43,406 bases of DNA from Alphaproteobacteria bacterium (GTDB lineage: Bacteria > Pseudomonadota > Alphaproteobacteria > DSM-16000 > Inquilinaceae). The notes under the pieces are model-generated. The model searched no databases. It saw only the letters and a list, made by a program, of their open reading frames with translations, and was not told the origin of the DNA. This document shows, piece by piece, positions 38,684 to 43,212 of the stretch; positions within the stretch are counted from its first letter, which is position 1; each line of letters opens with the position of its first letter. Made by a program: the position numbers and the translations under genes. The DNA lies in contig JANQKE010000146.1 in the NCBI GenBank assembly GCA_028281265.1, positions 1 to 43,406 on the forward strand, read 5' to 3'.

Positions 38684-38899
38684 ATGCGCGACGCCGATCT
38701 GATCCGCATGACCCGCCAGATCGCGGCGTTCTACGAGCCCTATCCGGAGGCCGAGGCGGTGGCCGGGATCGCCACCCATCTGCGCTCCTTCTGGGATCCG
38801 GCGATGCGGGCCCAGCTCGACGCGCTGGCCGAGACCGACCCCGACCGCTTCGCCGCCCGCGTCCTTGCCGCCGTCCGGAGTTTACGGGCGCCCACCTGA
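38684..38899 (+). CDS. fdsD: Formate dehydrogenase, delta subunit
   Basis: 71 residues, the small delta subunit that ends fds operons. It begins with RDADLIRMTRQIAAFYEPYP and contains AVAGIATHLRSFWDPAMRAQL, the family's conserved I-A-x-H-x-x-x-F-W-x-P-x-M-R motif. It has no cofactor site and is thought to help assembly or stability of the complex. It is 9 bp after fdhD. Confidence 0.9.
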   Translation: MRDADLIRMTRQIAAFYEPYPEAEAVAGIATHLRSFWDPAMRAQLDALAETDPDRFAARVLAAVRSLRAPT

Positions 38900-38993: not shown

Positions 38994-41900
38994 GTGATCG
39001 CACCGATGCGGTACGGGGTTTGCGCGGTCCTGGCGGTTCTGCTGGTCATCCTGGTCCAGCCGGCCGATCCTCCCACCCTCCTGTTGGTCGCGATCCTTGC
39101 GGGCCTGGCGCTATGGGCCCTGCTCGCCGTGCCGGCCTCCCAGGTCGCGGTTCTGGGCGCAGGGCTGATCCTGCCCGCCCTGATCGCGGTCTTCCTGCCG
39201 GGGATCGCCGTGGCCTGGGTGGCGGCGGCTCTGCTCTTGGGGGGGACGGTGTATCGGATCGCAGACCTCAGGCTCACGCTCATCAGGACGATCGCCGGCT
39301 GGCCGACGGGGTGGATCGTGGCGACGATCGCTTTGGCCCTGCTGGCCTTTGCCGCCGGCGCGCTGAGCTTCACGGAGCGGTACGACACCTATTGCGCGCC
39401 GGTCGACACCGCGGACCGGCCGGTGCTGCTGGGACGATCGGTTACCTGCCTGGTCGACAACCTGCATCGGGCCGGGGCGCTGTTCGCGCTCGGCGCCGAC
39501 TGGGCGTTCGAGACCCGGCCGGGCATCGACCCGGTGCCGTTCGGCTGGGAGGTGCAGATCCTGCGCATCGTCATGCCGCTGGTCGCGGTCGGCGGCATTC
39601 TGCTGCTGGTCCTGCGCTGGCTGGGCTGGCGCCTGCACGAGGTGACGATGCCGCGGCGGGGCCATACGGTCGTCGCCGGGCTGGGGCAGGCCGGAGGCAT
39701 CCTCGCAAGCCACTGGGACATCCGCCGCGACGGCCCGGTGCTGTTCGTCGACCGCAACCCGGACCCGGCGATCGCCCGGCGGACCCGGCGCCGCGGCATC
39801 CCGGTGATCGTCGGCGACGTGCTGCGGGACGACCGGGTGCTCAAGCGCACCAAGGCGCATCGCGCCGCCCGGGTGATCTGTCTGTTGCCCGAGGACGGCG
39901 CCAATATCGATATGGCGCTGAGCGTCCAGCGGCTGTGCGACCGGGGCGGCAGGCGGGGCACAGGCGGGCCGGCCGGGCGCCGGTCCTTCTGGGACACGTT
40001 GCATCGCCGGCTGCGCCGGGCGGCCGTCGGGCCGGACTTCGAGGCTCGCACCCGGCCGGACCCGGTGATCCAGGTCCATGTCGATCATCCGCAACTGGTC
40101 GGCCGGCTGGAGTATTACGAGAAGATCACGCATATGAGCGCGATCGATGTCCGGTTCCTGAACCTCTATACCGAAGCCGCGATCGGGCTGCTCCTGGACA
40201 ACCCGCCGGCCCTGTTCGCCGACCTGCAAGGCCAGGCCCGGGTGCATCTGGCGATCTACGGCTTCGGCTTCATGGGCCGGCAGGTGCTGGCGGAGGCCTT
40301 GCGCCATTGCCACTACCGCAATGCCAGCCGGCCGCTGATCAGCATCGTCGACCACGAGGCTGCGCGGGTCGCCGGCCTGCTGCGGCGGGAGGCGCCGGAG
40401 CTCGACCAGGTGGCCGACATCGCGGTCTACGAGCACACCTTCTTCCGGGCGGCCCTGTCGCTCGACGCGCTGTCCGAAGCAGCACCGGCCGGGACGTTCG
40501 GACAGCCGCCGGAGCGGGATAGCCGGACGAAGGCACAGCCTTTCGGCGCGCCGGTCACCGCCCACATCCTGTGTTTCGATGACGAGGTGCGGGCGCTCGG
40601 CTTGGGGCTGGCGCTGCGGGAACAGCTTCTGATCCCGCCCAAGGCCAACGCGCCGATCTTCGTCCGGCTCAAGCGGCAGGCGGGGCTGGCCGCCCTCTTG
40701 GCGAGCCACGCCGGCCGGAAGGAGTTGCCCGACGGCCTCTACCCGTTCGGGATGTTGGACACCGTGCTGACCCCCGATGCGCTCAAGGACGCGCGGATCG
40801 ATGCGCTCGCCCAAGGCATCCATTTCGCCTATCAGGAGAAGCGGCGCGACGAGGGCGCGCATATCCCGGTCAAACCCTGGCCGGAGCTCGAAGACACCCA
40901 CCGACGGACCAGCCGCCGCGCCGCCGTGCATGCGTTCGCCAAGCTGACCGGGTTCGACTACGACATCCGGCCGCCCGATCGGTCGACCCCGCTGCCGGCG
41001 GCCCCGGCGACGATCGACGCGACGGATCGGGAGCGTCTGGCCGAGCTCGAGCACCGGCGGTTCATGGCCTCCCACCGGATGGCCGGGCATGTGCGGGCCG
41101 ACCGCCGGTCGGACGCGCTGAAGCGGCACGCCCAGCTCGTCGACTGGTCCGACCTGAGTGAGTCGATGCGGGACAATGACCGGCGGCTGACCGCATCGCT
41201 GCCGGGCCTGATGGCCGCGGACCGCCGGACGTTGGAAGGGCTGGCAGCCCAGCAGGATCAGAAGCCGTCCGATATCGACACGGTGTGGGCGGCCCTCAAG
41301 CCGGTGGCCCTGTCGGTCCGGCCGATCCGCCGGCTGGGGGTGATCGCGCTGCCCGACGGCGACCCCGACGTCATGGCCTTGCGCGAGGCTCGGCCCCTGA
41401 CCGCGACCGATCTGTCCGCCGCGGCGGACCGGCTGGTCCGCGACAGGCTCACCGTCCGGGGATCGGTGGCCGGGGGCTCGATGTCGACCCCGAGGGTCGT
41501 GCCGCAGCAAGGTGCCGGTGACGCGCTGGTCGTCGAGGCCGGGGAGGCGGTGCATCTCTGGACCACCCTGACCACCGGGGCGGAGCGGGCGGTGGCCGAG
41601 GCGGTGGCGGCGCGGCGGGGCTGGCCGCTGGTGGCCGAGACGAAGCGGGACAGCGTGGTGCGCGGCGTCGCCGTGTCGCCGCCGCCGCCCTTCTGGGCGC
41701 CGCGGATCACCGCGCTGTTACCCCTGCCGCATGAGCTGTGGGAGCGCGGATCGATCTTCGCCCCGCCCGACGGCGGCGAGACCGCGCCCCGGGAGGCCCA
41801 GACGGCGTTCACCGAGTTGATCGGCAGCCAGGAGGTGCGCTACGTCGAACTGCCGATGCTCGACGCCGACGGCGGCCTGGCCCTGGCCGGCTGGGGAGAG

Positions 41901-42239
41901 GCGCCGACCGGGAGCAGCACTGACGGGGAGCGGGCGGCAGCGGCGGCCATTGAGGCCGAGCGTATCGAGGCCCAGCGCCGGCAATGGCTGCTGGCCCTGG
42001 CCCATCTGCGGCGCGCCTGCGCCCCGGTCTGGCTGCTGGTCCGCTGCGACGCGGAGTTCGATCTGGTGAACACCTGGTGGTCCCGGCACGCGCCGACGAT
42101 CCGATCGGACCTGGTCCCGGCCCCCCAGGCCCTGCTGCCCGTCAAGGACCTGACCGCTGATCTCCTGACCGACCGGCTGACGGTCTGTCCGATAGGCGAC
42201 TTCTCTGCAGAGAGCATGAACGAGATCGCCCCGTCATGA
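38994..42239 (+). CDS. Membrane protein with two TrkA-N-like Rossmann domains and a RyR domain
   Basis: 1081 residues. N-terminal hydrophobic segments lie at about 8-23, 28-46, 50-85, 107-125 and 188-210. Then a Rossmann unit like TrkA-N/RCK (GHTVVAGLGQAGG, VLFVDRNPD, VIVGDVLRDD; about 223-310) and a second (VHLAIYGFGFMGRQVL, SIVDHEA; about 417-465). A RyR-type domain follows at about 628-740 (WPELEDTHRRTSRRAAVHAFAKL..., LAELEHRRFMASHRMAGHVRAD..., VDWSDLSES...NDRRLTASLPGLM). Residues 741-1081 have no domain I recognise. No K+ filter (TVGYG) is seen, so it is not a plain potassium channel. RyR repeats in bacteria have been suggested to sense nucleotides. The GTG at 38994 follows GGGGGGAGGGGG; it lies 94 bp after fdsD and may be a separate unit. 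Confidence 0.7.
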   Translation: MIAPMRYGVCAVLAVLLVILVQPADPPTLLLVAILAGLALWALLAVPASQVAVLGAGLILPALIAVFLPGIAVAWVAAALLLGGTVYRIADLRLTLIRTIAGWPTGWIVATIALALLAFAAGALSFTERYDTYCAPVDTADRPVLLGRSVTCLVDNLHRAGALFALGADWAFETRPGIDPVPFGWEVQILRIVMPLVAVGGILLLVLRWLGWRLHEVTMPRRGHTVVAGLGQAGGILASHWDIRRDGPVLFVDRNPDPAIARRTRRRGIPVIVGDVLRDDRVLKRTKAHRAARVICLLPEDGANIDMALSVQRLCDRGGRRGTGGPAGRRSFWDTLHRRLRRAAVGPDFEARTRPDPVIQVHVDHPQLVGRLEYYEKITHMSAIDVRFLNLYTEAAIGLLLDNPPALFADLQGQARVHLAIYGFGFMGRQVLAEALRHCHYRNASRPLISIVDHEAARVAGLLRREAPELDQVADIAVYEHTFFRAALSLDALSEAAPAGTFGQPPERDSRTKAQPFGAPVTAHILCFDDEVRALGLGLALREQLLIPPKANAPIFVRLKRQAGLAALLASHAGRKELPDGLYPFGMLDTVLTPDALKDARIDALAQGIHFAYQEKRRDEGAHIPVKPWPELEDTHRRTSRRAAVHAFAKLTGFDYDIRPPDRSTPLPAAPATIDATDRERLAELEHRRFMASHRMAGHVRADRRSDALKRHAQLVDWSDLSESMRDNDRRLTASLPGLMAADRRTLEGLAAQQDQKPSDIDTVWAALKPVALSVRPIRRLGVIALPDGDPDVMALREARPLTATDLSAAADRLVRDRLTVRGSVAGGSMSTPRVVPQQGAGDALVVEAGEAVHLWTTLTTGAERAVAEAVAARRGWPLVAETKRDSVVRGVAVSPPPPFWAPRITALLPLPHELWERGSIFAPPDGGETAPREAQTAFTELIGSQEVRYVELPMLDADGGLALAGWGEAPTGSSTDGERAAAAAIEAERIEAQRRQWLLALAHLRRACAPVWLLVRCDAEFDLVNTWWSRHAPTIRSDLVPAPQALLPVKDLTADLLTDRLTVCPIGDFSAESMNEIAPS

Positions 42240-42293: not shown

Positions 42294-42773
42294 CTACACC
42301 AGCGTGGTGCGGATGCCGGGCCAGTTGGCGTCGGCCTGGCGGATGAAGCCGGCGCGGTTTTGGTCCCAGCGGTCGCGGACCCGCAGGTCGAAGTTCAGAT
42401 AGAGCTTGCCGCCGTCCGGCGTCCAGGCCTCGGGGACGGTCGGGGCGACGTAGCCCTGCGCCATCGCGAACGCGCAATAGCCGCCATATTGCGGTGCCCA
42501 GCGGGTGGGCTCGGCCAGGAACCGGTCGCGGTTCGCGGCCGTGGCGAAGCGCCAGACCGCACCGTCCCAGTCGGCGGTGATGTCCGGCCGACCGGCGACG
42601 GGGCCGTTGCCGTCGAAATAGGCGACCGTGTCGCTGCCGTCGATGGCGATCCGGTCCTCGACATAGACCGGGCTGGCGGCAGCGGGGCGAAGGGGCACCA
42701 GGGCGGGTACCGCCAGGGCAGCGGCGGTCAGCGCCAGGGTGCGGCGGCGGGTAAGATGCGGGGCGGTCGACAT
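42294..42773 (-). CDS. Exported YHS-domain protein
   Basis: 159 residues. A twin-arginine-like signal (RRRTLALTAAALAVPALVPL) ends near AAASP. A YHS-type domain covers about residues 45-105: DGSDTVAYFDGNGPVAGRPD, WRFATAANRDRFLAEPTRWAPQYGGYCAFAMAQG, the usual pattern of small periplasmic YHS proteins. The rest (YLNFDLRVRDRWDQN...NWPGI) also fits this group, of unknown function, often linked to metal handling. I choose the ATG at 42773 with GGAGGAC upstream. It converges with the RyR/TrkA-N gene, 54 bp apart. Confidence 0.85.
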   Translation of the reverse strand: MSTAPHLTRRRTLALTAAALAVPALVPLRPAAASPVYVEDRIAIDGSDTVAYFDGNGPVAGRPDITADWDGAVWRFATAANRDRFLAEPTRWAPQYGGYCAFAMAQGYVAPTVPEAWTPDGGKLYLNFDLRVRDRWDQNRAGFIRQADANWPGIRTTLV

Positions 42774-43212
42774 GGAAGACAGTCCTCCGGCATGCGGGGT
42801 CGGCATCGGGATCGGAAACCGGCGGGATCGCAGTCCCGTCCGGTCCCGTCCCCACAGATGGTCGCTTGTCCGCCACGATCGAAATCACCCCGCTTCACAG
42901 CCCGGCGATCGACCGGCGAGCGGTCAGATAGGGAGCCTCACCAGGATGTCCCCGTATGGGGGCCGTTTCCCGGCATTGGGGACGTCCAGGGCAGCGAAGC
43001 CACGGCACCAAGGGTCACCCTTGACGTTTCGAACGCCCGGAAAAGACAGACCCGCAAGAGCGTCGGAGACGCTGGGGAGAGCGTGAACGAACCCCGGCAC
43101 GCGGGGTTCGCCCGCACTGCTCAGATCGCCATGGACCGGCGCAAGCGCCCGCTGGTCGAGATGGGTTACGCCGTTGATCTGGCGAACGGCCAAATACGGG
43201 CACCCCGCGATC
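42774..43212. other. Gene-poor region with several small hairpins
   Basis: 439 bp. No reading frame has a recognisable domain. Inverted repeats: CCCCGTATGGGG (42950-42961) within a wider GTCCCC/GGGGAC pair (42948-42983), GCGTCGGAGACGC (43060-43072), and GAACCCCG/CGGGGTTC (43089-43109). A minus-strand frame at 42924-43193 (89 codons) is open but looks unlike a normal protein. Dense local pairing could mean a structured RNA or a repeat relic. Confidence 0.4.

What the first reader, a model, noticed from the sequence alone, without database searches (positions are those of the whole stretch)
38994..42239. Large membrane protein joining TrkA-N-like domains, a RyR domain and an unknown C-terminus
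Membrane segments, two Rossmann units with GxGxxG-like loops, a RyR-type domain and a 340-residue C-terminal region with no recognised family form an unusual architecture. Bacterial RyR domains have been proposed from comparative genomics to sense nucleotides in signalling or conflict systems; here the domain sits in a protein shaped like an ion-channel or transport regulator but without a K+ filter. It stands beside metabolic genes, not a recognisable defence island, so its trigger and output are open.
Basis: partly seen in the sequence, partly recalled or inferred. Interest (0 to 1): 0.7.

Follow-up and report, generated by a model that had tools for sequence, protein, structure and literature searches.

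The report
Bacterial channel with animal-type RyR sensor
This bacterial gene encodes a membrane protein built like a nucleotide-gated ion channel that carries the ligand-binding module of animal ryanodine receptors, and because its relatives sit again and again beside TIR immune enzymes, it is probably a channel switched by NAD-derived alarm signals.

Summary
The 1081-residue protein has membrane helices with a pore-helix segment, two RCK (TrkA-N-type) Rossmann units with GxGxxG loops, a complete two-repeat RyR domain (600-744) and a 337-residue orphan C-terminus. The RyR placement passes Pfam's cut-off on the domain alone. The four residues with which phage RyDEP binds or cleaves 2'/3'cADPR (H75, W78, H100, D117) fall on H687, F690, H712 and D729 with one constant offset. 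It belongs to a patchy family: about 24 members found, in Pseudomonadota and Bacteroidota. The pore descends from 2TM-RCK K+ channels, but the TxG[YF] filter is lost in every member whose pore was aligned. In 10 of 18 member genomes a TIR gene lies within 10 kb (0.2 expected), often in the same operon; the nine TIR domains checked keep the catalytic glutamate. Five further loci carry SLOG-SLATT and/or patatin genes. I infer a channel gated by NAD-derived nucleotides, an effector of TIR-type immunity. The window copy is a lone, divergent member behind a formate dehydrogenase operon, in a genome without a TIR match, so its own signal is unknown. New variant of a known kind; nothing was tested at the bench.

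The parts
38994..42239 (+). Whole gene, 1081 codons plus stop, GTG start
   Evidence: homologues in the same frame
38994..39239 (+). N-terminal extension (residues 1-82), three to four hydrophobic helices, not present in most relatives
39309..39647 (+). Pore module (residues 106-218): helix, pore-type helix, helix; no TxG[YF] filter
   Evidence: the family profile aligns here with 2TM-RCK K+ channels
39657..40223 (+). RCK1 (about residues 222-410), TrkA_N at 226-315, loop GLGQAG
40239..40787 (+). RCK2 (about residues 416-598), loop GFGFMG
40791..40958 (+). RyR repeat 1 (about residues 600-655) with H610 and Y613
   Evidence: two RyR stretches on residues 593-744; invariant H610, Y613
41019..41225 (+). 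RyR repeat 2 (residues 676-744) with H687, F690, H712, D729 at the spacing of RyDEP H75, W78, H100, D117
41226..42236 (+). Orphan C-terminal region (residues 745-1081), no recognised fold
38684..38899 (+). fdsD, last gene of the formate dehydrogenase group upstream; 94 nt gap to the channel gene; context, not a proposed partner

Best explanation
The protein is a ligand-gated membrane channel of a scattered bacterial family (pore - RCK - RCK - RyR). Shown by sequence: the pore and gating ring are related to RCK-type K+ channels, the K+ filter is gone, and an RyR domain with the cADPR-contacting residues is fused behind the gating ring. Inferred: four subunits form a pore with an RCK ring; an NAD-derived nucleotide (2'/3'cADPR, ADPR or a kin molecule) binds the RyR pocket and possibly the RCK Rossmann folds; the ring moves and opens the pore; the ion leak depolarises or halts the cell. 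In many relatives the nucleotide would be made by the neighbouring TIR enzyme upon phage infection, which makes the channel the effector of a TIR immune pair. The window copy is a stand-alone, divergent member; its nucleotide would have to come from an enzyme not encoded nearby.
For: RyR domain over Pfam's cut-off on 593-744, profile to animal RyRs E 3e-28 and to the K+ channel GsuK E 6e-14; fold match to DMI1/CASTOR/GsuK gating rings (Z 16-19) and RyR3 Repeat12 (Z 13.2). RyDEP ligand/catalytic residues H75, W78, H100, D117 (PMC13232231) map to H687, F690, H712, D729 with one offset. TIR_2 within 10 kb in 10 of 18 member genomes, 0.21 expected, P 4e-16; gaps of 5-38 nt or overlaps in G048, L026, G683, G672, G886; catalytic Glu kept in 9 of 9 TIRs. 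Five further loci with SLOG-SLATT and/or patatin. GsuK is activated by NAD+ and ADP (PMC3510474).
Against: No TIR_2 or ThsB_TIR match in the window's genome, and no defence gene beside the window copy. Trp78 is Phe in the query. A clade in Sphingomonadales/Caulobacterales and a few others have no such neighbour. Membrane part modelled poorly (pLDDT about 45-55); ion conduction, tetramer and ligand are not shown. The query's tree position is weak.
Confidence: 0.55

Rival explanations
1. Housekeeping channel or transport regulator: a GsuK-like RCK channel that reads the NAD/ADP state of the cell, the RyR domain being an extra adenine-nucleotide sensor with no role in immunity. This may fit the window copy and the Sphingomonadales clade better than the TIR-paired members.
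For: GsuK is opened by NAD+ and ADP; both GxGxxG loops are intact in the query; the window copy follows an NAD-linked formate dehydrogenase group and its genome has no TIR match; in two Sphingomonadales genomes the gene lies in the same place beside dnaJ and transporter genes.
Against: Patchy distribution (1 of 17 genomes in the order); strong TIR enrichment in relatives; no conserved gene after fdsD in sister genomes.
Confidence: 0.2
2. The RyR domain is a signal-degrading enzyme or sponge rather than a gate: as in phage RyDEP and its homologues it hydrolyses or traps cADPR isomers, so the protein is a membrane-bound off-switch that limits TIR signalling.
For: Both RyDEP catalytic residues, His75 and Asp117, are kept (H687, D729); RyDEP is an enzyme and several homologues only bind.
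Against: An off-switch needs no pore module or tandem RCK ring, yet these are kept in most members; in the RyDEP study the other tested homologues did not cleave.
Confidence: 0.15
3. Not a channel: the membrane helices only anchor an RCK-RyR sensor that talks to a partner protein.
For: No K+ filter in any aligned member; one tandem copy in L018 (492 aa) has no membrane part.
Against: Helix - pore helix - helix is kept across distant members and aligns with ordinary K+ channels; CASTOR/DMI1-type channels also have non-canonical filters (own knowledge, not tested).
Confidence: 0.1

Closest known systems
GsuK, tandem-RCK K+ channel of Geobacter sulfurreducens (PMC3510474; PDB 4gx0-4gx5)
   Same: Pore module followed by two RCK units in one chain; gating by NAD+ and ADP is published; profile E 6e-14, Z about 16
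   Different: GsuK has a K+ filter and no RyR domain
CASTOR / DMI1 (POLLUX) plant channels
   Same: Gating ring of two RCK units in one chain, best structural match (Z 17-19); non-canonical filter (own knowledge)
   Different: No RyR domain; no sequence relation tested beyond fold
Animal ryanodine receptor Repeat12 domain and bacterial RyR proteins (PF02026; PDB 9l91, 6uhi, 3nrt)
   Same: Two-repeat RyR fold, Z 13, shared ligand residues
   Different: Animal RyRs have an unrelated pore and many other domains
Phage RyDEP proteins (PMC13232231)
   Same: RyR domain with the same four ligand/catalytic positions; cADPR isomers as ligands there
   Different: Stand-alone phage anti-defence proteins; no membrane or RCK part; in query Trp78 is Phe
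Thoeris (ThsB TIR + ThsA effector)
   Same: In relatives a TIR enzyme gene lies beside a probable nucleotide-sensing effector
   Different: Effector is an RCK-RyR channel instead of SIR2-SLOG or macro-TM; window copy has no TIR partner
SLOG/SLATT/RyR nucleotide networks of Burroughs et al. 2015 (from memory; paper not held)
   Same: Proposed SLOG, SLATT, TIR and, as recalled, RyR domains as a signalling network; SLOG-SLATT neighbours are seen here
   Different: Could not check whether the RCK-RyR channel or its TIR pairing was described there

Membership tests
RyR domain (PF02026) | Profile score over the curated cut-off | tested here: met
   30.7 bits against 27.4 on residues 593-744; whole protein only 23.0 bits; 11 of 12 family members match
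RyR domain (PF02026) | Repeat12-type fold of two repeats | tested here: met
   RyR3 Repeat12 Z 13.2 over 145 residues at 3.6 A, Bt-hRyR chimera Z 13.1
cADPR-binding RyR protein (RyDEP-like) | Ligand residues His, Trp, His, Asp at RyDEP 75, 78, 100, 117 | tested here: inconclusive
   H687, H712, D729 kept at identical spacing; W78 is F690 in the query, Trp in the relatives
cADPR-binding RyR protein (RyDEP-like) | Measured binding or cleavage of 2'/3'cADPR | not testable with these tools
   needs purified protein
Tandem-RCK channel | Two RCK Rossmann units in one chain forming a gating-ring fold | tested here: met
   TrkA_N E 4.3e-9; DMI1, CASTOR, GsuK gating rings Z 16-19
Tandem-RCK channel | Two-helix pore with pore helix before RCK1 | tested here: inconclusive
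   Profile alignment with 2TM-RCK K+ channels; model of this part is poor
K+-selective channel | TxG[YF] selectivity filter | tested here: not met
   absent in the query and in all aligned relatives
Thoeris | TIR (ThsB) gene beside the effector | tested here: not met
   none beside the window copy, none in its genome; met in 10 of 18 member genomes
Thoeris | Effector of a known ThsA type | tested here: not met
   no SIR2, SLOG or macro domain in Pfam, no PADLOC match
SLOG sensor domain (C-terminus) | Profile similarity to SLOG domains | tested here: inconclusive
   hhalign E 0.21 over 18 residues; no Pfam match; AF2 pLDDT 39

The most novel reading that the evidence does not exclude
Bacteria use an ion channel gated by TIR-made cyclic ADP-ribose isomers through a ryanodine-receptor domain as an antiviral effector: a prokaryotic TIR - cADPR - channel circuit that would give the animal RyR ligand module a bacterial immune counterpart.
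Probability: 0.4. Interest if true: 0.85.

Novelty: new variant of a known kind. Interest (0 to 1): 0.62.

Why it matters
RyR domains were tied to cADPR isomers in a 2026 preprint, in phage proteins that disarm Thoeris. The same domain, with nearly the same ligand residues, fused to a bacterial channel whose relatives lie next to TIR enzymes gives a concrete, testable receptor for those signals on the host side. It suggests ion flux as an output of TIR immunity in bacteria, and offers an evolutionary handle on whether RyR channels sense cADPR through Repeat12.

Tried and rejected
Plasmid and phage collections by tblastn: no match. Viral contigs by profile: 7 pattern hits, none a relative. NCBIfam: none. 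PADLOC: none. C-terminus: no Pfam, PDB or homologue in 385 Alphaproteobacteria genomes; model alone pLDDT 39, so not searched further; the SLOG reading, suggested by eye (TGAERAVAEAV, LPLP), is not significant. The PF02026 search of the window's own genome missed even the window gene and no control genome rang, so it says nothing on other RyR proteins there. Literature: Burroughs 2015 not held; no held paper found that joins RyR with TrkA or SLOG. Considered and dropped: conserved operon with formate dehydrogenase; recent transfer judged by composition (gene GC 0.718, window 0.685, neighbours 0.69-0.75). The tree does not place the query firmly. The TIR enrichment counts related genomes (G683/G704); without G704 and the query genome it is 9 of 16, P 2e-14.

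Full report
WHAT IS THERE. The ORF 38994-42239 (+) is one uninterrupted frame of 1081 codons with strong third-position GC bias. From the N-terminus it carries: three to four hydrophobic helices (1-82); a helix, a pore-type helix and a helix running into the cytosolic part (106-218); a first Rossmann unit (TrkA_N 226-315, E 4.3e-9; GLGQAG); a second Rossmann unit (from 416; GFGFMG); two RyR repeats (about 600-655 and 676-744); and a 337-residue tail. The whole-protein RyR score (23.0 bits) falls short of Pfam's cut-off, but residues 593-744 alone reach 30.7 bits (cut-off 27.4) with two stretches. A profile of 12 homologues finds animal ryanodine receptors at E 3e-28 and the K+ channel GsuK at E 6e-14 among PDB sequences.

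STRUCTURE. AlphaFold2 with 12 sequences gives mostly confident RCK1, RCK2 and RyR parts (block pLDDT largely 70-89, with dips in loops) but poor membrane helices (about 45-55) and an unusable tail (about 30-50). The closest folds are the gating rings of plant DMI1 and CASTOR (Z 18.8 and 17.7, about 325-335 residues), KtrA, GsuK (Z 16.2) and TrkA; the RyR part matches human RyR3 Repeat12 (Z 13.2, 145 residues, 3.6 A) and a Bacteroides-human RyR chimera (Z 13.1, 20% identity). The tail folded alone reaches pLDDT 39 only.

THE FAMILY. Searches with the RCK2-RyR profile found relatives with the same order in Alphaproteobacteria, other Pseudomonadota and Bacteroidota, about 24 proteins in all, mostly under 30% identical to the query. 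It is rare: 7 of 398 sampled Pseudomonadota, and in 296 Bacteroidota five full-length members plus the more distant G759. In the window's own order (17 genomes) only the window's genome has it. Columns invariant in 12 members include RCK glycines and, in RyR, A683, E686, H687, R689, R705, H712 and D729.

LIGAND SITE. The 2026 RyDEP preprint (PMC13232231; [quoted passage not shown] In the query the corresponding residues are H687, F690, H712 and D729: the same offset of 612 for all four, hence the same spacing. The pattern H, +3 W, +25 H, +42 D holds in most of the 24 members. The query's Phe for Trp is the one departure. The mapping rests on spacing and motif, not on an alignment with the RyDEP sequence itself, which was not at hand.

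PORE. The profile's membrane plus RCK1 part hits ordinary 350-residue 2TM-RCK K+ channels of Bacteroidota with a TLTTIGF filter. Aligned with them, the RyR family keeps the first helix, the pore helix and the second helix, but none of the aligned members has TxG[YF]. So the pore most likely comes from a K+ channel that lost its canonical filter; what it passes, if anything, cannot be told from sequence.

NEIGHBOURHOODS. Beside relatives lie: TIR-nSTAND1-TPR 38 nt upstream (G048); TIR-TPR overlapping by 4 nt with more TIR genes on both sides (L026, Rhizobium); TIR-WD40 overlapping (G683; G704 alike, its TIR frame broken); TIR 24 nt upstream (G672); TIR 5 nt upstream (G886); TIR-WD40 convergent (G131); TIR divergent (L025/G668); TIR a few genes upstream (G759); caspase-type gene upstream and a TIR-nSTAND gene two genes downstream (G410); SLOG-SLATT (G209, in two frames; G351); patatin with SLOG-SLATT (G550, G085); patatin (L021). 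The SLOG call on those neighbours is by motif; Pfam names only the SLATT/DUF4231 part. TIR_2 lies within 10 kb in 10 of 18 member genomes where 0.21 would be expected from the number of TIR genes per genome (P 4e-16). Nine of nine TIR domains checked keep a glutamate at the NADase catalytic position. G048 and L026 have channels 74% identical, yet L026 has only an 84-residue remnant of the G048-type TIR and a different TIR protein in its place: the channel keeps company with a TIR even when the TIR is exchanged. A Sphingomonadales/Caulobacterales clade, L023, G466 and the window copy have no such neighbour.

THE WINDOW COPY. It follows fdsA-fdhD-fdsD by 94 nt on the same strand, but in three sister genomes the fds group is followed by unrelated genes, so the place is probably incidental. 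The genome (99.4% complete) has no TIR_2 or ThsB_TIR match. On the tree it is a long branch with weak attachment near G550, G209, G410 and G359. It has extra N-terminal helices and an orphan tail.

MECHANISM. Shown: domain content, loss of filter, conserved ligand-type residues, enrichment of the family beside TIR genes. Inferred: oligomer, ligand gating, ion leak, immune role. GsuK, the nearest characterised relative of the pore-ring part, is opened by NAD+ and ADP (PMC3510474), which makes adenine-nucleotide gating plausible even without RyR; RyR would add or narrow the signal. I put 0.55 on an NAD-nucleotide-gated channel acting, in the family, as effector of TIR-type immunity (for the window copy: the same kind of channel with an unknown signal source), 0.2 on a housekeeping NAD/ADP-gated channel, 0.15 on a signal-removing RyR enzyme or sponge, and 0.1 on a non-channel sensor.

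NOVELTY. PADLOC 2023 has no model that matches the channel, and no held paper was found that joins RyR with TrkA or SLOG. The 2015 Burroughs paper, which as recalled proposed bacterial RyR domains in nucleotide networks, is not held, so priority for the architecture is open. I therefore rate it a new variant of a known kind.

Noticed in passing
L042-L050, L052, L054 (Bacteroidota): A separate, common type of protein: an AAA-type NTPase (GPPGSGKS) followed by RyR repeats at the C-terminus, about 900 aa, without membrane or RCK part.
   Followed up: no
L018 2043-3521 and 7282-9060; L022 8948-10987: Sphingomonadales carry the RyR gene in a conserved place beside dnaJ and transporter genes; L018 has two copies, one without membrane helices, and L022 looks degraded at its N-terminus.
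   Followed up: partly
L029 3327-8742: Apparent three-gene operon: RyR channel, patatin-like phospholipase, SLOG-SLATT-like membrane protein.
   Followed up: partly
L007 9614-12346 and L026 9203-11938: The channel proteins of these two loci end in a SLOG-like domain (GVVGHRDL ... GADQ ... GGTVETV), a possible second nucleotide sensor; Pfam support is weak (YAcAr E 0.03).
   Followed up: partly
window 42294-42806 (-): Short gene with a twin-arginine-like leader and a YHS-like look (by eye), no Pfam match.
   Followed up: no
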